Positions 19,461 to 36,160 of a stretch of DNA of 36,160 nucleotides are shown in pieces. The notes beneath the pieces are model-generated. The model saw only the letters and a program-made list of their open reading frames with translations. It was not told where the DNA came from and made no database searches. The DNA is taken from positions 1 through 36,160 of the forward strand of contig CAMBZU010000032.1 in NCBI GenBank assembly GCA_945872355.1, given 5' to 3'. The DNA comes from Chitinophaga pinensis. Its GTDB lineage: Bacteria > Bacteroidota > Bacteroidia > UBA4408. Positions within the stretch are counted from its first letter, which is position 1, and each line of letters opens with the position of its first letter. The position numbers and the translations under genes were made by a program.

Positions 19461-19907
19461 ATGCTTCATGTAAATCAGAACTTTCTAATCATTGACGCTA
19501 AGGTTACATTAAATTGGGAATACGAAATACCAAAGCATTCAATCCTATTTATTTGGATACCTGAGCGCATTTTTTTTTGGAATAATTTTAAACGAGTTCC
19601 TGCTAAGGGAAGCATTGAGCGCATTGCAAAAGGTAGTTTTTTTAATGCGAAACTAAAAGTCTTATCCTTCAAGGGTTTAAAAACAGTTTGTGTTTTTAAT
19701 AAAACTGTTTACCATGTTAAAGTTAAAAACATGGATAGTGCAATTCAATTGATAAAACATCCAAAAATTAATAATAAACAGCAAGCTCAGAAAGAAATTG
19801 CCAGTTTGTTTTTTAATGTCAAAGGTAGAAGCATGCAAACAAAATATCAAACAATAAACCCGAAAACTAAAAACCCCACCATAAAAAACATTTTACCAAT
19901 CCAATAA
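19461..19907 (+). CDS. Unknown protein, first gene of the DUF4407/OmpA operon
   Basis: The 148-residue product is basic and has no signal peptide or membrane helix. I recognise no family. It starts with MLHVNQNFLIIDAKVTLNWE; its last third is Lys/Asn/Gln-rich and probably disordered. The gene ends 10 bases before the DUF4407 start, so it belongs to the operon. TATATTCG at 19449-19456 is a possible -7 box, but so close to the ATG that the transcript would be nearly leaderless. Confidence 0.55.
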   Translation: MLHVNQNFLIIDAKVTLNWEYEIPKHSILFIWIPERIFFWNNFKRVPAKGSIERIAKGSFFNAKLKVLSFKGLKTVCVFNKTVYHVKVKNMDSAIQLIKHPKINNKQQAQKEIASLFFNVKGRSMQTKYQTINPKTKNPTIKNILPIQ

Positions 19908-19917
19908 ATTAAAAATT

Positions 19918-21204
19918 ATGCAAGAAATCAAAGATTATTTAGTTGAATACAATACAACAAAACCTGTTTCAAAAGCTACTAAATTTTTATGGTGGTGCGC
20001 TGGAGCAGACAGACAAATTTTATTACAATGCCCTATGGCAGACCGCGTAAAATATGCTGGAATTGGTGGCATTGTTTTTTGCACAGGTTTATTAGCAGCA
20101 TTTTCAGGTGGATATGCATTTTATACCATTTTTAGTCCAAAAGGAGATGCTGTAAATCAAGATCCAACAGATCTTCCTAGTTTAATAGGCGCTGCTTTAT
20201 TTGCCATAGTTTGGGGATTAATCATTTTAAACATGGATCGTTTTATTGTATCAAGCACTGGTAAAGGTGATGGTACTGACGCTATCACAGGCAAGGAATT
20301 TGTTCAAGCTTTGCCTCGTATTATTATTGCGATCATTTTAGGTTTCGCAATTTCCTCACCACTGGAGGTAAGAATTCTTAAAACAGAGATAAACGCTGAG
20401 CTTCAAAATAAACAAGATGATTATTTGATGAGTTTAAATATGAAAACGGATTCAATCACTAATCTTCAAATGAAAAATAAAAAAACGGATTTATCAAAAG
20501 TTGAAAATGAGATAAAAGGTATTGAACAAAATTTCGAAAAACAACGCATTGAAATTTTAGATGGTAGAAAACGATTGGAAGATGAGATTGCAGGACGAAT
20601 AGGGTCAGGAAAAGCCGGAGAAGGCCCTGCTGCTAAAGCTCAAAAAGAAAATTTAAACAAACAGGAAGTTGAATTACAAGATAAGAAAAAAGCAAAGGAA
20701 CCAGAAATAATAGCTTTAAGAGATAGGTATACCAGATTAAACACAGAGTTAGATTTATTAGATAAAGGTAGAGATGAAAAGTACAAGAAGAACCAATTAA
20801 TTGCACATCAATTAGATGGTTTGATGGAAAGAATACATATTTCTCATGCTATTGGTGGCGTAGTGCCTTGGCTCATTTTCTTGGTACTTTTATCAATTGA
20901 GGCCGGTCCAATTTTCTTTAAAATGATAATGAATAAAGGCGTTTATGAATATTTGGTAGATAATAATAAAGAACGTTTTAAAGCACACAGTGGGGTGCTT
21001 GTGTCAGATGAATTAGTGCATGGTAAAGATGGCGCTAATCATGCCGAAAAAATATCCTATTTGGAAGTAGAGAAAGAAGTTGAAGCTAAAAAAAGGCAAT
21101 TAGAAAAGCAGTCTGATTTAACTTCTGACATTATTGATAAATGGCATGCTAAGAAAAAGGATGATATTAATGCCAATCCAGAAAGTTACTATACTGAGGG
21201 TTAA
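19918..21204 (+). CDS. DUF4407 membrane/coiled-coil protein
   Basis: The 428-residue protein matches DUF4407: KFLWWCAGADRQILLQCP, then helices at about 45-70, 82-104 (with the conserved NMDRFIVSS just after) and 125-145. A long charged coiled coil (about 155-300) follows, then a fourth helix (about 308-332, GGVVPWLIFLVLLSIEAGPI). The tail is cytoplasmic and charged. The family has no established function. The TM pair plus long coil plus TM, with an OmpA-domain partner two genes on, recalls MotA/MotB-like inner-membrane complexes in outline, but no MotA sequence motif is present. Confidence 0.85.
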   Translation: MQEIKDYLVEYNTTKPVSKATKFLWWCAGADRQILLQCPMADRVKYAGIGGIVFCTGLLAAFSGGYAFYTIFSPKGDAVNQDPTDLPSLIGAALFAIVWGLIILNMDRFIVSSTGKGDGTDAITGKEFVQALPRIIIAIILGFAISSPLEVRILKTEINAELQNKQDDYLMSLNMKTDSITNLQMKNKKTDLSKVENEIKGIEQNFEKQRIEILDGRKRLEDEIAGRIGSGKAGEGPAAKAQKENLNKQEVELQDKKKAKEPEIIALRDRYTRLNTELDLLDKGRDEKYKKNQLIAHQLDGLMERIHISHAIGGVVPWLIFLVLLSIEAGPIFFKMIMNKGVYEYLVDNNKERFKAHSGVLVSDELVHGKDGANHAEKISYLEVEKEVEAKKRQLEKQSDLTSDIIDKWHAKKKDDINANPESYYTEG

Positions 21205-21209
21205 TACAT

Positions 21210-22265
21210 ATGCTAGCCGCCTTACTTTTTGGATTAGAAGAAGCTATCCTAACAGACTGTTCAGCCAAGGAAATCAATCGTTATAAACGCTTGGCTGTAT
21301 TTTTTTTGCTTTTAATTTTGTTAGGCTTTGTTTCATTTTATTATTTTTTCTATCTCCTTACCCAAAATTATGTTGCAGCGTTTTTCGGTTCGCTTGTTTT
21401 AAGCTTTATTTATTTTTGTATCCTTCGCTTTACAATTATTACAATTAACGTTTCCTTGAGTGAGGAAATGACAATGCAACGCATGCTTCGAAATTACGCC
21501 AATGTATACCGCGTTATACTTTTTGCAGCTTTTGTATTTACCATTGTAGTTCCATTGGTTGCGTTAATTAATCACAATGATTTCACACTTAATTTAAAGG
21601 ATTATAAAAGTGCTTTAAATGAAGGCTATAAACAAAACAGAATAAAGGCAAAACAACAACAATTAAATATATTATCCGGCGAAATTGCGCAATTAAAAAA
21701 ACAAAAAGACACCTTCAGTCAAAAATTAGCAAAAGCCAGCAACTCGATGGATAAAGGGTTGACTGAATTTGAAATAAGAAAAATTGATACGCTTATACTT
21801 TTAGCAAGCAATAAATATAGTTTGAAGGATGGTATTTTAACACTCGAAAATGAACAGTTAACCAATCAATATCAATTGCAACTGGCTAATGCTGAGTTGC
21901 CGTTTTATAGATTTCAATTGGCTTTTAAAAATAAAACGGATGTTATTTGTTTGCTTTTTTTGTTCTTTGCTTTCATTTTAATCATTCCATTTTACATTAG
22001 AGCGCTTGTATCTGCTGATTCAAATTATGCCAAGTTATTTAAAGAAAAAATTAAAAATAGAATCGTTAATGAATATGAATTAACCAAAAGAGATTGCAGT
22101 AAAATTTTGAATAAAAAATATGCATTTGCTAAAACTAGTATAAGCTTATACGAGGATAGTCCTTTTAACAATAAGCCTATCAGCTTGCCCTATAAAAAAG
22201 TAACTACTAAAAATTTGTCTGAACATTTTCAAAAAGCAGCAACCACTATTTCAACAAATGAATAA
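21210..22265 (+). CDS. DUF4407-like membrane protein, divergent second copy
   Basis: The 351-residue protein repeats the layout of its neighbour: helices at about 27-48, 50-75 and 98-118, a Gln/Lys-rich coiled coil at about 128-225, and a fourth helix at about 238-262. The conserved DUF4407 opening (WWCAG, NMDRF) is absent, so this is a diverged paralogue or analogue. It starts five bases after the DUF4407 stop and overlaps the OmpA-domain gene by eight bases. The two coil proteins probably assemble together. The function is unknown. Confidence 0.7.
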   Translation: MLAALLFGLEEAILTDCSAKEINRYKRLAVFFLLLILLGFVSFYYFFYLLTQNYVAAFFGSLVLSFIYFCILRFTIITINVSLSEEMTMQRMLRNYANVYRVILFAAFVFTIVVPLVALINHNDFTLNLKDYKSALNEGYKQNRIKAKQQQLNILSGEIAQLKKQKDTFSQKLAKASNSMDKGLTEFEIRKIDTLILLASNKYSLKDGILTLENEQLTNQYQLQLANAELPFYRFQLAFKNKTDVICLLFLFFAFILIIPFYIRALVSADSNYAKLFKEKIKNRIVNEYELTKRDCSKILNKKYAFAKTSISLYEDSPFNNKPISLPYKKVTTKNLSEHFQKAATTISTNE

Positions 22266-23385
22266 TAAATTCATCACAGGTCAATTTAAATCTAGTTTTT
22301 CAACTGCCCTTATTGGTAAGTTTGAAAAGCCAGTTGTTGATTTGAGAGCTATTGAGCTGCGCGGAAGAAAAGTGCTTGATAACGCACATTTTATTTCATC
22401 AGCACCTTCCATTTTAGAAAGTGATTTGAAATTAAAAGATACCTACATTGCTAGTGTTGAGATTTTTCCGAAAGCAGGTTTATTGCCGCCATTAGAGAAA
22501 GCTAAAAAATTAAATCTTTTTCAAGTACGTATTGTTAATCCTGTAATTACACATCAACAAGACATTGATGGTGTAAGGCATGGCGTTATTGAAGGTTTGT
22601 TATTTGCAACTTTATTGGATGAAAAAACTGAAGACGTTATTGCTAAAAAGAATAGTGAAATAAAAACCACAAATACAGTTGTTGATCCTATTGTTGACTC
22701 CAATGTTGATCCTCTTTTATCGCCAATTGCACCTGTATCAAATCCAGGATGTTTACCTGGTGCAGCCTTACTTCAAAAACGTGGTTGTATGCCTGGTGCA
22801 GGCTGTTTCGGCATATTTAGAAATGGTTGTTCAGGAATTTTTCTTTTACTTGTTTTATTAGGATTGCTTTCTACACTTTTTAAAACCTGTTCGAAATACA
22901 CAACGAACCAAAACGATGCAGATCTCATTAAGACCGATGATAAAACAAGCGATGATTTTATTAATGATAAGGAGCGTCGTATTGAAGAAAAAGATACTAC
23001 AGCATTTGTAGATACCAAAACAATTAAAGAAATAAGAACTATTGCCTTGCCCAATGTGCAGTTTTTCACAAACAGTTCAGTTTTAATTCCATCTTCAAAA
23101 AAAGATTTAGAGCAGCTTGCCATATACTTATTAGAAAATCAAGATGTTAAAGCAAAAATTATTGGGCATACCGATAATGTTGGAAATGCCAGTTCAAATT
23201 TGTTATTATCACAAAATAGAGCTGAGTCTGTTAAAACTTATTTGGTGAGTTTAGGAGTAAATTCAAACCGAATTAAAGCAATAGGTAAAGGTTCAACAGC
23301 GCCTAAAGTACCTAATGATACTGAAGAGGGCAGGTTAATGAATCGCCGTGTAGAAGTGGAATTAGAAAATTATAAAAGCATTTAA
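22258..23385 (+). CDS. Inner-membrane anchored OmpA-domain protein
   Basis: The 375-residue protein has an unusual N-terminal domain (about 1-125) without a signal peptide, a Gly/Cys-rich linker, one membrane helix (about 193-209) and a C-terminal OmpA-like peptidoglycan-binding domain (about 265-372). The PG-binding positions are present: Asp306 in IIGHTDNVGN and Arg321 in SQNRAESV. The helix places the N-domain in the cytoplasm and OmpA in the periplasm, as in MotB/ZorB. Nine cysteines around the helix are striking. It is translationally coupled to the preceding coil protein. Confidence 0.85.
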   Translation: MNNKFITGQFKSSFSTALIGKFEKPVVDLRAIELRGRKVLDNAHFISSAPSILESDLKLKDTYIASVEIFPKAGLLPPLEKAKKLNLFQVRIVNPVITHQQDIDGVRHGVIEGLLFATLLDEKTEDVIAKKNSEIKTTNTVVDPIVDSNVDPLLSPIAPVSNPGCLPGAALLQKRGCMPGAGCFGIFRNGCSGIFLLLVLLGLLSTLFKTCSKYTTNQNDADLIKTDDKTSDDFINDKERRIEEKDTTAFVDTKTIKEIRTIALPNVQFFTNSSVLIPSSKKDLEQLAIYLLENQDVKAKIIGHTDNVGNASSNLLLSQNRAESVKTYLVSLGVNSNRIKAIGKGSTAPKVPNDTEEGRLMNRRVEVELENYKSI

Positions 23386-23402
23386 AAATAAGTAAATATC
23401 AA

Positions 23403-25133
23403 TTGAAAGAACAAATTATATATTTAAAAGGAACTGCCAGTGGATTTTATAAATCCATTTCAATAAATCATTCTGGCCATTTTACTTTTAATGCTTTTGA
23501 TTTTCAAACCATTGATATTAGAAATTCTGAAGTTGTTGAAGCATTTAATACAAATGAACTTAAAATTGGTTTGTATCATGAGTTTATAAGTCCAGTAAAA
23601 GATGTTCGCGTATTTATCAATGAAACTGATTTTATTCAAGAGCAAATTGATGAACTTTTATTTACGGATATTAAAATAGCTGAAATGCTTTACATCAATA
23701 GTGAAGCACATCAAAGTTATACAGCAAACGTTTTTTACAAAATAAAGAAAAAAGTAGTTGAAACAGCCATCACTCCGGCACCCATTATTCCTGTTTTTAA
23801 TATTTTTAAAAATAAGGCTACCAATAAATTTAATGTACCCGTTGAAGATACAAATGCAACAATAAAAAATGCAACGAATATTAGTAGTAATTCCAATACG
23901 AACAATCAAAGTTTTTTAAATTTATTGCTTAGTGCAATTATTCTGTCGTTTGGTGTTTTCTTAGGTTTATTTATTTTGTTTGGACTAAGACCAATTACCT
24001 GGTTGCTGCCCATTTTCTTTTTTGTAAGTGTACTTTTGGATGGATTAAAAATAAGATTTCAGGGAACTACAAATCCGCTTCAACCAAGGCTGCCTTTTAT
24101 AAATATAATTGGTTGGCTACTGCTTTTTTATGCGTGCTATCATTTACTAAGCAATGGCTTTTCATTTAAAACAGCCATACTTGCACTTTTAGGTTTAGGT
24201 TTTATTTTATTATCAAGAGCAGGGCGCAGCTTAAAAATTATTGGTGGCATTATATCCTTAATTGCATTTATTGCGCTGCTTTCTTTATTTAATATTTTCA
24301 ATCTAAAAAAGGGAACTAAGCAAGGCGCAAAAGATGACCTTATTGAATATGATAATAACAATGAAGATAAATGGGATTATAAGCCAGAAGAAACAACAGA
24401 TACAATATATTCAAAAGACAATGACACAGTTGCTGTTACTTATTTAAAGCATCATTTAAAATGGAACGATAACAATCAAAATCCACACCAAGCATTATTA
24501 ATGATAAGGAAAGATTATTTTAATATCGCAACCATCAAACGCAACCAATTAGAAGTAAACAATTCCGACTTTAGAAATTATTACCATCAAATTTATAGCA
24601 ACTTAATTAATCAAAATAAAACCTATTTAGATGCTGTAATACAAGAATACTGCCGGATTGGTAAAACTGAAAATTTAAACCGTAAGCAATTTGCCGATAT
24701 GGTAGTTACTTCAATTCAAAACATACCCTATTATTTAGTGCATGATTTAACACACCGTGAGGCCGATTTAAAATATGGAGGGTTTGTGCGTGAATACCAT
24801 CAAACAGGCAAGCCTTGTTTAGATCAAATAAAATTTGGTGTGCAGGCGCCAGCTGAATTTATGGGTAACTTTAAAGGTGATTGTGATACAAGAAGTTTGT
24901 TTTTATTTCATGTGCTTTCTAAATTTGGATACCATGTTGTGATGTTGGGTTCAGAACAATATTCACATTGCATCATTGGCATATCAGGTAATTACAGTGG
25001 CGACTTTGTGAATTATAATGGATTAAAATATTACGTTTGGGAAACCACAGCCACCAAGTTCACACCCGGAAACATATCGCCCGAATGCGGTAATATGAGG
25101 TATTGGGTGGTAGCATTAGCAAATAAAAATTAA
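23403..25133 (+). CDS. Polytopic membrane protein with C-terminal transglutaminase-like domain
   Basis: The 576-residue protein starts at TTG 23403; no ATG or GTG lies in frame after the previous stop. Residues 1-165 are a soluble, Asn/Lys-rich region, then about five membrane helices (172-297) and a C-terminal domain with a transglutaminase/papain-like triad: Cys494 (GDCDTRS), His522 (SHCIIGI) and Glu547 (WETTA), where Asp is more usual. The domain may cut or crosslink peptides, and its location inside or outside depends on an odd helix count. It follows the OmpA-domain gene by 17 bases. Confidence 0.75.
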   Translation: MKEQIIYLKGTASGFYKSISINHSGHFTFNAFDFQTIDIRNSEVVEAFNTNELKIGLYHEFISPVKDVRVFINETDFIQEQIDELLFTDIKIAEMLYINSEAHQSYTANVFYKIKKKVVETAITPAPIIPVFNIFKNKATNKFNVPVEDTNATIKNATNISSNSNTNNQSFLNLLLSAIILSFGVFLGLFILFGLRPITWLLPIFFFVSVLLDGLKIRFQGTTNPLQPRLPFINIIGWLLLFYACYHLLSNGFSFKTAILALLGLGFILLSRAGRSLKIIGGIISLIAFIALLSLFNIFNLKKGTKQGAKDDLIEYDNNNEDKWDYKPEETTDTIYSKDNDTVAVTYLKHHLKWNDNNQNPHQALLMIRKDYFNIATIKRNQLEVNNSDFRNYYHQIYSNLINQNKTYLDAVIQEYCRIGKTENLNRKQFADMVVTSIQNIPYYLVHDLTHREADLKYGGFVREYHQTGKPCLDQIKFGVQAPAEFMGNFKGDCDTRSLFLFHVLSKFGYHVVMLGSEQYSHCIIGISGNYSGDFVNYNGLKYYVWETTATKFTPGNISPECGNMRYWVVALANKN

Positions 25134-25151
25134 TAATATAAATTATAAACA

Positions 25152-25676
25152 ATGAAAACAGAAATCAACATTGCCTTAATAGAATTAGTCATTTCATTGG
25201 CTATAGGCATATTAACCGTTTATTTAACCAAATCAGTTTTAATGAGGTTTTATCTCAAAAAAACGAATGAACAAAACCCATATCAAAATTTGTCGTTTAT
25301 GATATTTTTAAGTGGAACCATCTTTTCCATTTCATACATTGTTTTTGGCATCATGGAGCCCTTGTCATCAACTATCAAATTGCTTTCAACAAATAATACA
25401 TCGTTATTCATATTATGGCTAGGTATTTTTAAATATTTAGGAATGTTTTTAGTATTAGGTTATGGCTTTGGCGCAACCATTGTGTACACAGCTTACCATC
25501 TATTTTCTAAATTAACCAGAAACTTAGATGAGTATGATGAAATTACAAAAAACAATGTGGGTGTAGCATTGCTAATTGCAGTATTAACTATTGTAATTGC
25601 CTTATTTACAAAAGATCCATTTATCATATTTGTTGAGTCTTTTATACCTTACCCAGATGTGCCAAATATTATGTAA
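25152..25676 (+). CDS. DUF350-like four-helix membrane protein
   Basis: The 174-residue protein has four membrane helices at about 8-28, 48-66, 83-108 and 133-152. The signature LDEYDEITKNNVGVALLIAVL before the last helix resembles DUF350/YjfL proteins, which usually read 'DEI..GNVAVA'. DUF350 genes commonly travel with SPFH, PspA and polyamine-related envelope-stress genes. It ends the operon, 18 bases after the transglutaminase gene. The family call is by motif memory and moderate. Confidence 0.6.
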   Translation: MKTEINIALIELVISLAIGILTVYLTKSVLMRFYLKKTNEQNPYQNLSFMIFLSGTIFSISYIVFGIMEPLSSTIKLLSTNNTSLFILWLGIFKYLGMFLVLGYGFGATIVYTAYHLFSKLTRNLDEYDEITKNNVGVALLIAVLTIVIALFTKDPFIIFVESFIPYPDVPNIM

Positions 25677-26634: not shown

Positions 26635-27633
26635 CTAATTTAACCTTTCGCATTTATTCCCATACCTTCCTAAAAAATAATCTATTTCTGGATTATCCCA
26701 AATTGTAATTTCAATAATTAAGTTTTCAGGAGTATCTTCAATTACTTTTTGCGAAGAATGTATTTTTTTATTCTTTACAATTCCCATAGCCCATTCAGTA
26801 AATTTCAACCGAAAGGTTTTAAGTTTGTTTTCTTGCCAATCATACCAAATGCCTAAACTATATTTTAATAATTCATCAAGTTTTGTGGATTTATACAAAG
26901 CATCATAATTAAAATAAAGGTATTTCGGTTCTAATGTGTTTTCATCACTTTCATCTACTGCTGGATTTACTTTTTTTTCAACAAACATATCTAGGCAGAA
27001 GGTTTGAAGCAGGTTGGTTGGTTGATCGGTTTTTTCATCAATCTTACTGGCCAACATGTAATATCGATTGTCATAATAGCGAATTTGCAATGGAGCTACT
27101 TGTTTAAATTCAGTCACTCCTTTTTTCTGATAATTAAATAGGATAGCTTGACCTTTTTTAATGTATTCAATTATTTGGCCTGCCAACAATAACAATTCGT
27201 CCTTGTGATTTAAACTGGGGTTTACATGTACAAAATAAGGATAGCTTTTTAAATCATTTTTAGTATAATCAAATTCTTCCATTAAAGCCGATTTAAGCCA
27301 TTCAACAGCACTCATTGTGTGCTCTGTGTCTAGCAATCCTAAAAGCAATGGGAAAGTGAGCATCTCGTCTTCATTTAGTGCACTGTTTTCAGGTATTCCT
27401 TCCAGTACAAAATAGTTTTGGCCATTGAATTTTCGAGAGTTAATTTGATAACCATTCTCCAATAAACTGTCTTTTGCTCTATCAAAGGTCCGTCTGGAAA
27501 TAGGTTCAATACCGTATTCATTTTTTAAAATATCGTTCAATGAAATCATAAGTTCCTTCACAGAAAGTCTCTTTTCACGCAGGAGTTTCACAATACATTT
27601 TTTGTACAATCGCTTTTTACTGAAGTCTTCCAT
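26635..27633 (-). CDS. WYL-domain transcriptional regulator
   Basis: The 332-residue protein has an N-terminal winged helix (RLYKKCIVKLLREKRLSVKE, then ISRRTFDRAKDSLLENGYQI) and a WYL-type domain (about 150-270) with ILFNYQKKGVTEFKQVAPLQ and YYDNRYYMLASKID. A C-terminal WCX-like part ends IWDNPEIDYFLGRYG. WYL regulators bind nucleic-acid ligands and often control defence genes; it lies at the left edge of the defence-like region. A well-formed promoter precedes it. Confidence 0.85.
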   Translation of the reverse strand: MEDFSKKRLYKKCIVKLLREKRLSVKELMISLNDILKNEYGIEPISRRTFDRAKDSLLENGYQINSRKFNGQNYFVLEGIPENSALNEDEMLTFPLLLGLLDTEHTMSAVEWLKSALMEEFDYTKNDLKSYPYFVHVNPSLNHKDELLLLAGQIIEYIKKGQAILFNYQKKGVTEFKQVAPLQIRYYDNRYYMLASKIDEKTDQPTNLLQTFCLDMFVEKKVNPAVDESDENTLEPKYLYFNYDALYKSTKLDELLKYSLGIWYDWQENKLKTFRLKFTEWAMGIVKNKKIHSSQKVIEDTPENLIIEITIWDNPEIDYFLGRYGNKCERLN

Positions 27634-29882: not shown

Positions 29883-32800
29883 TTATTCTATACTTTTTAC
29901 CTTTTCGCCAAACTCTTGTTCTGTCATTTTTCCTTTGGAAACTTTTTTAGCCCACACAAGGACCTCTTCTTTATCATCCTCATCGGATATTTCGTGCAAC
30001 CACTCTGTTAGGTTGGTTGATGAACGCGCTAATATTGCTTCCTTAAAAAAGTCATTTTTCCAATTAACAAAATGCTTAAACCCATAAAATTTATTTTCTA
30101 AAACAGAACCGGATTGGGGTTGGGATCCACCACTTAAAAATATTTTATAAACAACATGATTAATTAAAATAATTTCAATTAAATCAGTGAAGCTATATGA
30201 CAAATTAAGTAACTGAAAAACAAAAAGCTCACTGTAATTATCTAATTCAACTGATTCAATTATTCCATATAAAAAGTGTTTTTTTGATTCATCATTAGTT
30301 ATAAATAAAAGCAAAGAATCAATATTAACAGTTTTATTTAGTTTGTAATACGCCTTCCCAAACTCAAAAAATGTTTTTGTAAGCGTGCTTGACCTTTTAA
30401 TATATTTTGATATTTTGAGAGCTAATTCATATTGATTAGTTTCAAAATAAAAAATTGCTATCCTCATAAAACAACCATTTTGGTCGGTGAGATAACCATC
30501 TGATTCAGCATCCTTCAGTATGCTGATTACCTCAATGGATTGCTCATGCATCCCTTGACGTGCATATTCTAAAGATAAAGCACTAACCATTGTGGATTTT
30601 GGTGTTAGTATTCCGATACTTTCTCTATATCTTTCAAGGTATTTTAAAGCATTTATTTCATCATTATCTTTCCAAAATAATTGTGCTGCTGATAAATAAC
30701 ATATATTTTCTCTCGAACAAATTTCATCGATTCTATTGTTTAAATAAAAAGCTTCCGAAAGTTCAAACCATTTCCATCCACCATATTTTCTTCCTTTTAA
30801 TATCTCATCTAAAATTTCTGAACTTTTATTATAATTAACTTGATTATAATAATAGACTGATAATTTTGACTGAATATCAATTTCTCTGCTACTGTCAAAA
30901 CTGAAATTTTTTAAAATGATATTTAAGTAGTCTATTTTACCTTGGCTAATAAGCTCTTGAGCAAAATCCTCTAAAACATATCCGTCTAAAGATTCAAGTT
31001 TAGGGATAATTAATTTATAACAATATTCTAAAATTTCATTCGTTTCAATCATCCTATTCTTAATAAATGAATGTCTTGAAAGATTTATTAAAATTTCGAT
31101 TTTTTTATTATCCGATTTCTTCTCTATTAAACCTAAAATGTCTTCAAACCTAATTTTGCCTAATAATGAGATTAAAATTTTGATCTCCCAATCCATTCTT
31201 TCAGTATTGGTAGTAATCCCAGTGCAATCACTCAAGGCTGATGACAATACTGAACCAGCGTGATGATCATTCTGCAAACATTGGCTTATTTTATACTTTA
31301 TATTTAAAGGAAATAAAATATTATTATGTAATAAATTGGATGTAGATAAGGAGTATAATAAAACCTGATACACATTGGAAATGTCAGGCTTTTCAATTAA
31401 TAAATCGCAAATATTTTTTATGGCAAGTGATTTATAGCTAGATGTCGTCATTGATTTAATCAATTCAGAGGCACCTTCTATATTTCGGTTTAAAAGTAAT
31501 TGAAAGCAGATATCCTTTTTGTATCTATCCCTTAACTTAATATGGCTTACTTCATTTATAACAGATAATAGGTATTTTATTATTTTATTACTTTCATTTA
31601 AAATATTCAGTTTTTGATATTGTTTAGAAATTTTAATTAATGATTCGATACTGAATAGCTTGTCATCAATTTTATTTAATAAGTTTTTTGCTTTTTCAAT
31701 TAAAATTAAAGAATAATCATTTAAAGCGTTTTCTATAGCAAAATCTGTAAGGTCAATTATACAATTAATATCTTCTTTTGTGTTGCTCAAAATTTCCAAA
31801 TATTTTTCAAAAGATTCTTTGCTTTTCAAGATATTTAAGTCTACTTTTAAGGAGCTTGATGAAATTTCCTCAGACATTGCACCTGGATAAAATATTACGT
31901 GTTTTTGAATTTCCTCTGCTTGTTGCATCAGCCCATTATTGGAAAGAATTTTGATTAATGACATAAAAGTATTAGATCTTTTATAATTTAAATTCATTTT
32001 TAATCCAAATTCAATAGCATCATTTACATTGTTTTGACTGCATAGGTTTAATGATATTTTAGATAATATTGTATCTCTATTATAAGGTTCATTAATTAAA
32101 TGCAAAAACTTTTCAATTAAAATAAAATCTTCAATATTTAATTTTTTTTCAGTTTCAAGCCAGTCAGAACTCCAGTTAGCGGTTCGCTTATAGAGTATGC
32201 TATAATCTATATTCATTTTATTTATCTGAGTCGTCAATTTAAATATTAAATAACTTGATATGAAATCATTCCAATTAAGTATTGAATGATCTACCGGCAA
32301 ATGTTCATCCAAATGTTTTAACAACTTTTCAATTCCTTCTTTTCGAAATTGGTTTTCTTTGCTGTCAAGAAGGATAAGCTCAATCAAGCACAGTATATAC
32401 AAAATGAACTTGCGTTGCAAACCCTCTTTGTCATTACCTCCAAAACTTTCAATGCGTTTCAAGGCCAGATCAAGATCTTCCGATTTTCCAGTTGCTATTA
32501 AAGCCACTACCTGCGGAGCATCATTTGCTTCTTCGTATTTTAAATCTACTAAGCAAAGTGCAGCTTCCAACTGAGCATCGTAATGTTGTAATTCACTTGC
32601 TTTTTTCAAACTCAACTGATACAAGTCTTTGGTGGCATCGAATTGTTTCAATACCTGCTTTTGGGTAGTAGTGTATGCATTGTTTTTAAATAGGTTGAGT
32701 AATTCGGTGTGCCGGGCTTCTTTTTTGCTTTCGCTCAGATGCAGAGCATAATGTTCCAGCGCATAGCGTTGTTCCCAACTGCCCTCCAATTCTTTCCAGT

Positions 32801-34589
32801 TTGCGCAAAAATCAAGAATGCGATCGCTAGCATCTCTTACTTCTTTGGCTTTTTCTTTTACTAAATACTCCCGAAAACTTTCGTGAAACAACTGATAATC
32901 GAGCACTTCCTCGGTAAGCGGATTTTCATAGAGTACTTCTTTTAAGGTGCTGCCTATGCGTTGCATGGTGGCATTTCCCAATTTATTAATAATACCAAGA
33001 TGAGACATGGTTAAGTAATCTTTTGCTGAAGCAAAGGTGAAGAGTCCGGCAAGTAAGGCATCACCATCAACCGCATCTTGCGCATAGCGTTGCAGAATGG
33101 CTTTATAGTATTCGTCAATTTTTTCAGGAAGGGCGTTTACATCATTAATAGCAATACTACCATATTCAATGGCATCGCAAAGTAATTTCAAATACAGCGG
33201 ATTTCCTTGCGAACGTTTTTGTACCGCATCAATCCATACACTTTCGCGCTCTACTTCGTATTTGTTTGCTACTTCATAAATGAGCGCGCGAATGTCTTCC
33301 TTGCCCAAGCCAGAAAGCTCGAGTTTAGTATGCGTTAAAACTGGCAATTGGTTCCATAAATCATCAATGCTTTTGTGTCCGCCAGGCCGAGAACCATAAA
33401 TAATTAAGATGTTTTCAAAATTTTCGCGAGGCAGGTAAGTCACCACATTATTTTCAACTCCTTCATCCAAGCCGTCAATTAAAAAAAGTAAGTGTTGGCC
33501 TTTTGCTTGTTCGCCCCACAAGCGCCATTTTGTAAAGAGTTGATTTTGCAGATCAAACACCATCTTGCCTTCGGCTCGAATTTCTTTGCCGGCTGAAAAT
33601 AGTTCATCGGTTCGGCGGATAAGATAATTAAACATATATTCCACCTGGGCCTGTTGGGTACCACGGCGAATAAAATACTCTACAACATGTAGCTTCTTTA
33701 ATTCAGAATGTGCACGTAGGTCTTTAAAAAACTGAGCAATCAGCGCTGACTTGCCAATGCCCGGATTCCCTTGAATGGAAAAATAACCTTTGTGATTATT
33801 AAGCACAAACTGCAACAATTTTTCGCGTTCAATAGTTCTGCCTTTAAAGGTTTCTGTGAGTTCCTCAATGCGTTGGTAGAATTCATTATTGCCAACTTTT
33901 TTCCATTCGTTAAGCGGGAGGTGCTCGTGAAATTCGGTATAAAAATCTTTTTCTTTATAGTGCTTACTTAAAGGGTAATTGAGTAAACCAATTTTATCGT
34001 TTTTTAAGTCATTGAAAAATGCAAATGAAGCATCAGAGGCTTCCTTGCGAAAAAGAAACATTGGATGAAGACTGAGCGTTCCATTTGAAGTTGCAATCAA
34101 AACTTTTCCATCCTGAACCTCCATCGATGATTGCGCCAACCATTTCGATTCCATTAGTTGTTTTAAAAAAGAATCAAATTTTTTAATATCAGCTTCACAT
34201 TGCGCATCGCTAGGAGTAGCTCCGTGGGCATAGCCGTTTCGAAATGCAACGACATTTGTTTTATCTATGTTCAGTGCTTTATCGAGAAAAATAAACTCGT
34301 TTGCAAAATCATTTAATATCCACTCATAATTGTCTTTTTGCAATTCTTCAAACAGCACTCTGCTAAACAATTGCCATGAACCTAATGAAGGGGTGCGCAA
34401 CCCTTGAGCGAGTAAACCCTTTGCGGAATCACTCAGCTTGTTGTGTTGTACATATGCAGAAACGATAATCACCGTATGTGTTTTGATGATGCTCTCAAAA
34501 AGGTCGATCATGCGGTGTACTTTCCGGAATGGCTGTGTTTCGGAGAGGTAAAGCTGGTGTAGTATGGTTAGATGAGTATGTTTTATCAT
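29883..34589 (-). CDS. HEPN-like/STAND NTPase/solenoid protein, NLR-like defence candidate
   Basis: The 1568-residue protein has three parts. Residues 1-150 carry an R-x4-H motif in RNGYAHGAT (Arg117, His122) within a helical region, as in HEPN RNases. The STAND NTPase core has Walker A GNPGIGKSAL (274-283), Walker B LLFLIDGLDEG (367-377), YGSRPGG (about 399-405) and a winged-helix region with FHESFREYLVKE. The remainder (about 600-1568) is a long helical repeat array, TPR-like but degenerate. This is the layout of bacterial NLR-like antiphage proteins, in which the solenoid senses a phage component and ATP-driven assembly releases the N-terminal effector. The base composition changes sharply within the gene near 32280. 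Confidence 0.85.
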   Translation of the reverse strand: MIKHTHLTILHQLYLSETQPFRKVHRMIDLFESIIKTHTVIIVSAYVQHNKLSDSAKGLLAQGLRTPSLGSWQLFSRVLFEELQKDNYEWILNDFANEFIFLDKALNIDKTNVVAFRNGYAHGATPSDAQCEADIKKFDSFLKQLMESKWLAQSSMEVQDGKVLIATSNGTLSLHPMFLFRKEASDASFAFFNDLKNDKIGLLNYPLSKHYKEKDFYTEFHEHLPLNEWKKVGNNEFYQRIEELTETFKGRTIEREKLLQFVLNNHKGYFSIQGNPGIGKSALIAQFFKDLRAHSELKKLHVVEYFIRRGTQQAQVEYMFNYLIRRTDELFSAGKEIRAEGKMVFDLQNQLFTKWRLWGEQAKGQHLLFLIDGLDEGVENNVVTYLPRENFENILIIYGSRPGGHKSIDDLWNQLPVLTHTKLELSGLGKEDIRALIYEVANKYEVERESVWIDAVQKRSQGNPLYLKLLCDAIEYGSIAINDVNALPEKIDEYYKAILQRYAQDAVDGDALLAGLFTFASAKDYLTMSHLGIINKLGNATMQRIGSTLKEVLYENPLTEEVLDYQLFHESFREYLVKEKAKEVRDASDRILDFCANWKELEGSWEQRYALEHYALHLSESKKEARHTELLNLFKNNAYTTTQKQVLKQFDATKDLYQLSLKKASELQHYDAQLEAALCLVDLKYEEANDAPQVVALIATGKSEDLDLALKRIESFGGNDKEGLQRKFILYILCLIELILLDSKENQFRKEGIEKLLKHLDEHLPVDHSILNWNDFISSYLIFKLTTQINKMNIDYSILYKRTANWSSDWLETEKKLNIEDFILIEKFLHLINEPYNRDTILSKISLNLCSQNNVNDAIEFGLKMNLNYKRSNTFMSLIKILSNNGLMQQAEEIQKHVIFYPGAMSEEISSSSLKVDLNILKSKESFEKYLEILSNTKEDINCIIDLTDFAIENALNDYSLILIEKAKNLLNKIDDKLFSIESLIKISKQYQKLNILNESNKIIKYLLSVINEVSHIKLRDRYKKDICFQLLLNRNIEGASELIKSMTTSSYKSLAIKNICDLLIEKPDISNVYQVLLYSLSTSNLLHNNILFPLNIKYKISQCLQNDHHAGSVLSSALSDCTGITTNTERMDWEIKILISLLGKIRFEDILGLIEKKSDNKKIEILINLSRHSFIKNRMIETNEILEYCYKLIIPKLESLDGYVLEDFAQELISQGKIDYLNIILKNFSFDSSREIDIQSKLSVYYYNQVNYNKSSEILDEILKGRKYGGWKWFELSEAFYLNNRIDEICSRENICYLSAAQLFWKDNDEINALKYLERYRESIGILTPKSTMVSALSLEYARQGMHEQSIEVISILKDAESDGYLTDQNGCFMRIAIFYFETNQYELALKISKYIKRSSTLTKTFFEFGKAYYKLNKTVNIDSLLLFITNDESKKHFLYGIIESVELDNYSELFVFQLLNLSYSFTDLIEIILINHVVYKIFLSGGSQPQSGSVLENKFYGFKHFVNWKNDFFKEAILARSSTNLTEWLHEISDEDDKEEVLVWAKKVSKGKMTEQEFGEKVKSIE

Positions 34590-34691: not shown

Positions 34692-36160
34692 TTACTTTCT
34701 CAATAACTGCATCCAGTGTTCCCAAATAATTACCATGGCTAGGGTATCTAATCGGCAATAATCTAATAATGCCTGTTTGTATTTATTTTTTACTTCATTA
34801 TTATCTCTGTTTAATCCATAAACCATGTCTTGGTATGCTAGCATTGGGCCTGAACCGTCTTTTACTATTATTTTTTGTCCTTTGTATTCAATCGAGATTT
34901 CAGGTAAAATATCATACGGATTGATTGTATTACCATCGCTATCTTTTTTAAATAAACCAATATCATCTAATAATTCTTCTATTTGAGTTGATTTATTAGA
35001 TTTTAAAACAGCAGGCAACACCAGCTTAATAGATTTATAACCTCCCCTTTCGGTTTGAAAGTAAAATTCTTTAGCCCAATCATTCATATCAATCATCCTT
35101 TTAAACGAATCATTTTGATCTTGAATTATTAAACCCTCTATCCATTTTTTTAATGTTAAATCAAAATCCGGTATTTCTAACATAGAAGTGAAAATAGACT
35201 GCAATTGCTTAATCTGATATTCACTCCAAATCATCACACTGCCGACGTTGCCGATACAATTTCTTAATTGATTGGCAAATTCCAAATTTGGATACAAGGT
35301 ATCAGTATTAATCCATTCGTAATATTTTGGTTTGGTGTTAGGCGCATCTATAGTATGGCAACTCCATTGAAAAATAACCTTTTCGCAGCAACGCATATTT
35401 TTATGATAAGGAAAAGCCATTTGTGATGTTTCAAAAGCAATAAAGTGCAGTGGGTACTTCACATTGCTGTTTTGTATTTCCTCTAATAATTCTTCTAATA
35501 AAAACTCTTGTTTTTTTATTAAGGGATTATAGGTAGAAGAATAAATCTCATATGATTTAGTAATTTCATCTATAGGCCCTTCCTCTACTTCTTTTTTCCC
35601 TTGTGCAATAAAGTAATTGATAAAATTATCTTTTTGGTTTATGTTACCTAATTTTACTAAATCTAAAATAAATGGATTTTCTCTTAGCGCTAATTCCCCC
35701 CAACATTCTAAAAAGCCATTTTTTTTTACATTCGCCTGCACTTTAAACTCGCAATGCCTGCATTTAGAAATTGGAGGTGAATGAATTTTTTTATTACTAA
35801 TAATACTTTCAATATAAGATTCAGCTTTCGCATTCAACTTTGGCAACCATTTGTCAATAATATTATCAACGGGAATGAGCGCTAATAATTGATTTTCTTT
35901 ATTTCTTAAGTCTTTTAAATTTTGGTCATTCCCAATAAATTCAACTTCTTTTTTTTGGTAGGTGGTATCTGGTTTTGGCACAGTTTTAACTAATTTAAAC
36001 CATGTCAATATAGCATCTAGAGGAGAAAGAAATATTTTATCAGGCATTAACATAAAAGCTGAAACATTTGATAATGGATATTTTTCTTGAACCACCATTT
36101 TTTGAAAAGCAACATCTTCTAAATATTTTTTATATTCCTTATTATCTAAAGATTTTTTTT
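34692..36160 (-). CDS. DUF2779 domain protein, C-terminal part (runs off right edge)
   Basis: The frame stays open from the right edge to the stop at 34692, giving 489 codons. The first visible residues (KKSLDNKEYKKYLEDVAFQK, then MVVQEKYPLSNV and MLMPDK) match the middle of DUF2779 proteins, whose N-terminal part is a PD-(D/E)XK-like domain. A cysteine cluster CRHC...CWGE (about 135-155) is present, as are HFIAFETSQMAFPYH, a DnaQ-like DEDD exonuclease opening with Glu for the usual Asp, and a closing LLDYCRLDTLAMVIIWEHW. Family function is unproven. The N-terminus is outside the window. An ATG at 36098 is internal. Confidence 0.8.
   Translation of the reverse strand, partial: KKSLDNKEYKKYLEDVAFQKMVVQEKYPLSNVSAFMLMPDKIFLSPLDAILTWFKLVKTVPKPDTTYQKKEVEFIGNDQNLKDLRNKENQLLALIPVDNIIDKWLPKLNAKAESYIESIISNKKIHSPPISKCRHCEFKVQANVKKNGFLECWGELALRENPFILDLVKLGNINQKDNFINYFIAQGKKEVEEGPIDEITKSYEIYSSTYNPLIKKQEFLLEELLEEIQNSNVKYPLHFIAFETSQMAFPYHKNMRCCEKVIFQWSCHTIDAPNTKPKYYEWINTDTLYPNLEFANQLRNCIGNVGSVMIWSEYQIKQLQSIFTSMLEIPDFDLTLKKWIEGLIIQDQNDSFKRMIDMNDWAKEFYFQTERGGYKSIKLVLPAVLKSNKSTQIEELLDDIGLFKKDSDGNTINPYDILPEISIEYKGQKIIVKDGSGPMLAYQDMVYGLNRDNNEVKNKYKQALLDYCRLDTLAMVIIWEHWMQLLRK

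What the first reader, a model, noticed from the sequence alone, without database searches (positions are those of the whole stretch)
19461..25676. Six-gene membrane operon: DUF4407, coil paralogue, OmpA-domain, transglutaminase-like, DUF350-like
The genes are spaced by -8 to 18 bases and read one way. They combine two TM/coiled-coil proteins with an inner-membrane protein whose periplasmic OmpA domain can hold peptidoglycan. To these are added a membrane transglutaminase-like enzyme and a DUF350-like protein. In outline this recalls ZorAB or MotAB-type assemblies plus an enzymatic effector, but none of the known Zorya or motor sequence motifs is seen. The predicted outcome is an envelope-sensing complex, perhaps for stress or phage.
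Basis: partly seen in the sequence, partly recalled or inferred. Interest (0 to 1): 0.75.

Follow-up and report, generated by a model that had tools for sequence, protein, structure and literature searches.

The report
Conserved envelope-spanning operon in defence islands
A strictly ordered block of six membrane-protein genes, including a wall-binding protein and a protein-cutting-type enzyme, recurs in scattered Bacteroidota, often among anti-phage genes, and looks like an undescribed machine that watches the cell envelope; what it does has not been tested.

Summary
The six genes are real, co-directional and spaced -8 to +18 bp. The same order (g1, DUF4407, DUF4407 paralogue, [wall-binding protein], transglutaminase-like enzyme, DUF350) was kept in all 35 related loci with three or more recognised members, from many Bacteroidota genera. 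Distribution is patchy (2 of 8 family genomes); a congener has the homologous left flank without the operon and a divergent copy elsewhere. Flanking genes include Hachiman, type I R-M and Avs-like genes; the best PADLOC match is 8e-245, versus 5e-24 in random regions of the same genomes and 5e-32 beside a related 'LuxE-TG-DUF350' dyad. The enzyme folds as a transglutaminase-like thiol protease, with its Cys-His-Glu triad kept in 80/80 relatives and predicted to lie in the periplasm. The fourth gene's product has PG-binding OmpA and shares a cytoplasmic beta-domain with the enzyme. A motor is not supported: the wall protein's membrane helix lacks the ZorB/MotB aspartate and no MotA/ExbB/ZorA homologue was found. 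My reading: a wall-anchored inner-membrane complex that senses envelope damage, probably phage attack, and activates a periplasmic protease. The module is solid; the defence role is inferred from context; trigger and target are unknown.

The parts
19461..19907 (+). g1, 148 aa, small protein without predicted TM, no known family, fast-evolving
   Evidence: positional homologue directly upstream of g2 in 29 loci
19918..21204 (+). g2, 428 aa, DUF4407 (system type): 4 TM helices and a ~70+60 residue helical hairpin
   Evidence: PF14362 1.5e-58; AF2 pLDDT 77; invariant E328, E150, D107, R134, K335
20380..20808 (+). g2 residues 155-297: helical hairpin predicted in the periplasm, conserved G-P at its tip (residues 236-237)
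   Evidence: side by positive-inside reasoning (inference)
21210..22265 (+). g3, 351 aa, divergent DUF4407 paralogue, conserved C-terminal D-P-P-F-N motif
   Evidence: PF14362 1.3e-11; hhalign to g2 1.6e-22; alignment
22258..23385 (+). g4, 375 aa: beta-domain (predicted cytoplasmic), Cys/Gly-rich linker, one TM, periplasmic OmpA domain
   Evidence: PF00691 1.8e-19; N-domain homologous to that of g5; TM without acid
23062..23343 (+). g4 OmpA-type peptidoglycan-binding domain (residues 269-362), D306 and R321 nearly invariant
   Evidence: OmpA+LysM+SH3 in L090
23403..25133 (+). g5, 576 aa (TTG start): beta-domain, 5 TM, transglutaminase-like thiol protease domain
   Evidence: AF2 pLDDT 84; VIA-align 3kd4 Z 9.3, LapG Z 8.9, PNGase Z 8.2
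23403..23756 (+). g5 N-terminal all-beta domain (residues 1-118), shared with g4
24387..25121 (+). g5 catalytic domain, triad C494 (24882-24884), H522 (24966-24968), E547 (25041-25043)
   Evidence: conserved in 37/37 class A and 43/43 class B relatives
25152..25676 (+). g6, 174 aa, DUF350 (YjfL-type) 4-TM protein
   Evidence: PF03994 7e-10; next to g5 in 35 class A and 40 class B loci

Best explanation
The operon encodes an inner-membrane complex tied to the cell wall. The two DUF4407 proteins form a membrane core whose long helical hairpins reach into the periplasm. g4 grips peptidoglycan with its OmpA domain. g4 and g5 carry the same small beta-domain in the cytoplasm, which probably brings them together. 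g5 places a transglutaminase-like thiol protease in the periplasm, and g6 (DUF350) is its membrane partner. Disturbance of wall or membrane, most likely during phage entry or another envelope attack, is relayed through the DUF4407 core and releases the protease, which cuts an envelope protein and so triggers killing or repair. Shown: gene content, fixed order, homologies, fold, triad conservation, patchy distribution, association with defence genes. Inferred: complex formation, sidedness, trigger, substrate, outcome, defence role.
For: Fixed order in 35/35 loci with near-zero spacing. Correlated divergence of the members (g2/g5 rho 0.71, g2/g3 0.66, g4/g5 0.63, none of 500 permutations as high; shared ancestry contributes). 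Shared N-domain of g4 and g5. The wall-binding module varies but stays wall-directed: OmpA, or OmpA+LysM+SH3. Transglutaminase-like fold and intact triad. J-domain fused to the N-terminus of g5 in L128 and L143, which points to a cytoplasmic N-terminus; odd number of TMs (1, 3 or 5) in about 27 of 30 homologues after discarding calls inside the beta-domain, so the protease should face the periplasm. Patchiness: 15 of 295 class genomes with any g5 match, about 10 of them strong; 2 of 8 family genomes; homologous nifU flank without the operon in a congener. Defence neighbours: complete Hachiman in L128, type I REase in L147, RADAR RdrB in the L025 region, Dpd-type helicase in L126 against weaker and fewer hits in two controls.
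Against: No experiment. Some loci show no recognised defence gene among those tested. The flank comparison counts PADLOC families, not proteins or independent loci. The TG-DUF350 pair also occurs beside LuxE-like genes in housekeeping surroundings (class B), so its basic activity need not be defence. g4 is missing or replaced in about half of the loci, so wall anchoring by g4 is not universal. The window's own right flank has only a WYL regulator and a STAND-type ATPase with modest PADLOC matches. Complex formation was not modelled.
Confidence: 0.42

Rival explanations
1. A LapG-like surface-control system: the periplasmic thiol protease trims or releases a surface adhesin or lipoprotein in response to wall or membrane cues, as LapD/LapG does with LapA. 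Not defence; it lies in islands because surface traits are also exchanged there.
For: LapG is among the best fold matches (Z 8.9); predicted periplasmic side; Bacteroidota have many surface proteins (general knowledge).
Against: No LapD-type receptor and no recurrent adhesin gene in the operon; no Peptidase_C93 hit; families recognised next to the operon include restriction and other defence genes rather than a recurrent surface protein.
Confidence: 0.2
2. A general envelope-stress maintenance module of the PSP/DUF350 type that repairs or crosslinks wall or membrane proteins, perhaps with a transglutaminase-type reaction using polyamines.
For: DUF350 (YjfL) genes belong to PspA and polyamine-linked operons (PMC11237479); a lone DUF4407 gene is common in Flavobacteriia; a TG-DUF350 pair sits in housekeeping surroundings (class B).
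Against: No PspA, CesT/Tir or polyamine gene recognised in the operon; patchy distribution and variable position fit an accessory defence role better than maintenance.
Confidence: 0.25
3. A Zorya/MotAB-like ion-driven motor with an enzymatic effector.
For: Outline: multi-TM coil proteins plus a one-TM protein with an OmpA-type domain; PADLOC ZorB models hit g4 (2.6e-11), mainly through the OmpA part.
Against: No acidic residue in the g4 TM core in 19 homologues; no MotA/ExbB/ZorA hit; no ZorC/D/E-like gene in the operon; an ion-driven role would have to rest on g2's invariant E328.
Confidence: 0.05

Closest known systems
Zorya (ZorAB)
   Same: Inner-membrane complex with a one-TM subunit carrying an OmpA/MotB-type wall-binding domain; defence-island setting
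   Different: No MotA/ExbB-type subunit found, no TM aspartate, no ZorC/D/E; contains a thiol protease and DUF350
PSP-associated DUF350 (YjfL) operons (PMC11237479)
   Same: DUF350 membrane protein in an operon proposed to act at the envelope
   Different: No PspA, CesT/Tir or polyamine enzymes; DUF4407 pair and wall-binding protein instead
LapG (bacterial transglutaminase-like Cys proteinase)
   Same: Transglutaminase-like fold, predicted periplasmic side
   Different: Membrane-tethered with its own cytoplasmic beta-domain; no LapD; sequence not recognisable as Peptidase_C93
Lone DUF4407 genes of Flavobacteriia and other Bacteroidota
   Same: Homologous membrane protein
   Different: Not in this operon; distinct group (1e-87 to 1e-108 to the Pfam model versus about 1e-57 to 1e-79 for the operon type)
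LuxE-TG-DUF350 dyad of marine Flavobacteriaceae (class B, this work)
   Same: Same protease domain with intact triad next to DUF350
   Different: Lacks the beta-domain, the DUF4407 pair and the wall-binding protein; housekeeping surroundings

Membership tests
Zorya | ZorA, a MotA/ExbB-type subunit | tested here: not met
   no PADLOC ZorA or Pfam MotA_ExbB hit to g2/g3 at E up to 1
Zorya | ZorB with C-terminal OmpA/MotB-type domain | tested here: met
   PADLOC ZorB 2.6e-11, mainly through the OmpA domain
Zorya | conserved Asp in the ZorB TM (PMC11890865) | tested here: not met
   no acid in the hydrophobic TM core of 19 homologues; D/E seen only at the edge in 6
Zorya | ZorC/ZorD or ZorE | tested here: not met
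   none among operon genes
Zorya | 5:2 stator assembly | not testable with these tools
   no complex prediction available
PSP/DUF350 operons | DUF350 protein | tested here: met
   PF03994 7e-10
PSP/DUF350 operons | PspA, CesT/Tir or polyamine enzyme in the operon | tested here: not met
Transglutaminase-like thiol protease superfamily | fold | tested here: met
   3kd4 Z 9.3 (139 aligned, 2.8 A), LapG Z 8.9, PNGase, TGases; most of the top 25 rows are this superfamily
Transglutaminase-like thiol protease superfamily | Cys-His-acid triad | tested here: met
   C494, H522, E547 in 80/80
Transglutaminase-like thiol protease superfamily | enzyme activity | not tested
   needs biochemistry
LapG (Peptidase_C93) | Pfam Peptidase_C93 match and a LapD partner | tested here: not met
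   no Peptidase_C93 hit in 30 members; no such gene in the operon
DUF4407 | PF14362 above curated cut-off | tested here: met
   g2 198.9 and g3 44.8 bits, cut-off 31.3
Known defence systems in PADLOC 2.0 | any specific model hitting g1, g2, g3, g5 or g6 | tested here: not met

The most novel reading that the evidence does not exclude
An undescribed class of Bacteroidota immune system in which a wall-anchored DUF4407 membrane complex senses envelope breach during phage entry and triggers a periplasmic transglutaminase-like protease: defence carried out in the envelope without any nuclease.
Probability: 0.33. Interest if true: 0.85.

Novelty: categorically new. Interest (0 to 1): 0.62.

Why it matters
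It gives a defined, widespread operon to two domains of unknown function (DUF4407, DUF350) and to a protease family that Pfam barely detects, and proposes that phage or envelope attack can be sensed and answered in the periplasm. It is directly testable: six genes, one catalytic cysteine.

Tried and rejected
Motor/stator reading: rejected on family searches and the TM aspartate test. g1 as a third copy of the g4/g5 N-domain: rejected (hhalign 0.1-0.2%). Carriage by phages or plasmids: no g5 relative in viral contigs or plasmids; Lak megaphages carry only a lone DUF4407. Direct PDB profile searches with g2, g5 and g6 gave only coiled-coil, membrane or weak noise. Foldseek alone on g5 was inconclusive (best 0.24, PNGase) until realigned; on g2 it returned ABC-exporter helix bundles with meaningless superpositions, and absence of a motor there is not proof. 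Literature: DUF4407 is named in 3 held papers, in gene lists only in the two that I opened; no held paper links DUF350 with a transglutaminase-like system of this kind. The library lacks preprints and most subscription papers, so prior description elsewhere cannot be excluded.

Full report
Six ORFs on the + strand lie at the stated coordinates with gaps of 10, 5, -8, 17 and 18 bp. g2 is DUF4407, g3 a weaker DUF4407, g4 ends in an OmpA domain, g6 is DUF350; g1 and g5 have no Pfam family. g2 and g3 are the only DUF4407 matches in the genome.

The module is conserved. A first search with g5 found 15 of 295 genomes of the class with any match, about ten of them strong. Fetching the surroundings showed the same neighbours in the same order. 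A profile search of one genome per species found 186 relatives; the best 80 loci were kept. They fall into two classes. Class A, 37 loci, is the operon: g1, g2, g3, optional g4 or a substitute, g5, g6. In all 35 loci with at least three recognised members the order is strict, with gaps mostly between -20 and +15 bp. Class B, 43 loci, has the protease, in 40 cases next to DUF350, typically after a LuxE-like gene in what looks like conserved chromosomal surroundings of marine Flavobacteriaceae. Members of class A diverge in step. Nearly all records are Bacteroidota; two (L121, L160) bear other names and may be misbinned.

What the proteins are. g5 was predicted with good confidence (mean pLDDT 84): an all-beta domain (1-118), five membrane helices (169-302) and a catalytic domain (329-573). 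Realignment against the PDB gives transglutaminase-like thiol proteases: 3kd4 Z 9.3, LapG Z 8.9, TglA Z 8.3, PNGase Z 8.2, human transglutaminases 7-8. Cys494, His522 and Glu547 are kept in all 37 class A and 43 class B proteins (the Cys was part of the search pattern, the His and Glu were not). The beta-domain of g5 is homologous to the N-terminal domain of g4 (95.4%, 1.9e-8). g4 continues with a Cys/Gly-rich linker, one membrane helix and an OmpA domain whose D306 and R321 are nearly invariant; from general knowledge these are the peptidoglycan-binding positions of the family. In L090 the same protein carries OmpA, LysM and SH3 domains, all usually wall-binding. In L098 and L106 the C-terminal part is different, and in about half of class A g4 is absent. 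g2 is the best-conserved member (mean column identity 45%); its model (pLDDT 77) has four membrane helices and a long helical hairpin, and E328 within the fourth helix, E150 and D107 are invariant. g3 is its divergent paralogue with a conserved D-P-P-F-N motif. g1 is the most variable member (17% mean column identity).

Sidedness is inferred. In two class A loci (L128, L143) a DnaJ J-domain is fused to the N-terminus of g5, and L064 appears by eye to have one too; DnaK is cytoplasmic, so the N-terminus should be inside. The number of membrane helices before the protease domain is odd in about 27 of 30 homologues after discarding calls inside the beta-domain, so the protease should face the periplasm, as does the OmpA domain.

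Distribution and surroundings. In the family of this genome 2 of 8 genomes have a g5. Congener G168 carries the homologous nifU-asd-queD flank (74% nucleotide identity over 2.6 kb) but no operon beside nifU, and a divergent operon (34% g5 identity) on another contig. I scanned 145 proteins flanking class A operons with PADLOC: 276 families matched at 1e-5, the best 8e-245, at least a dozen below 1e-100. The same scan of 145 proteins flanking class B gave 15 families, best 5e-32; 108 proteins from random regions of class A genomes gave 26, best 5e-24. Individually: a complete Hachiman pair just downstream in L128, a type I restriction enzyme in L147, an Avs-like ATPase in L108, a Dpd-type helicase in L126, RADAR RdrB about 6 kb from the L025 operon. 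The count of families exaggerates the contrast because one protein can hit many models and loci are not independent; the direction is clear. In the window the right flank has a WYL regulator and a 1568-aa STAND-type ATPase with modest PADLOC matches.

The motor idea fails its tests. Zorya and MotAB need a MotA/ExbB-type subunit and an aspartate in the ZorB/MotB helix (PMC11890865). g2/g3 match no such family and none of 19 g4 homologues has an acid in the hydrophobic core of the helix.

Interpretation. The most economical reading is an inner-membrane complex anchored to the wall that turns an envelope disturbance into activation of a periplasmic protease. The defence role rests on neighbourhood and patchiness only. 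A LapG-like surface-control system and a PSP/DUF350-type maintenance module remain open; the class B dyad shows that the protease-DUF350 pair has a wider use.

Novelty. No PADLOC 2.0 model hits g1, g2, g3, g5 or g6, and no held paper describes such an operon. Preprints and most subscription papers were not searchable. I call it categorically new as a gene system, with unproven function.

Noticed in passing
MK250020.1 26618-27502 (L194 6971-8227) and 14 other Lak phage records: All 15 matching Prevotella Lak megaphage records encode a lone DUF4407 protein (29% identity to g2, about 1e-26), without the other operon genes beside it in the one record checked; role unknown.
   Followed up: partly
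L116, L100 and about 35 other class B loci: A separate conserved unit: LuxE-like acyl-protein synthetase, 3-TM transglutaminase-like protein with intact triad, DUF350, mostly in marine Flavobacteriaceae; no description found.
   Followed up: partly
window 29883-34589 (-): 1568-aa STAND-type ATPase (PADLOC STAND_TPR 1.8e-7), near a WYL regulator at 26635-27633 and a DUF2779 protein at 34692-36098: a possible defence stretch.
   Followed up: partly
L128 8792-10744, L143 8774-10747, L064 6327-8237 (-): DnaJ J-domain fused to the N-terminus of the g5 protease (Pfam for L128 and L143, by eye for L064), suggesting recruitment of DnaK.
   Followed up: partly
window 22732-22875 and homologues (alignment A5): g4 has a conserved Gly-Cys-rich stretch just before its membrane helix (several GC motifs, C191 invariant); function unexplained.
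   Followed up: no
L025 85-2690 (-): RADAR RdrB-like protein (3e-34) about 6 kb from a class A operon.
   Followed up: no
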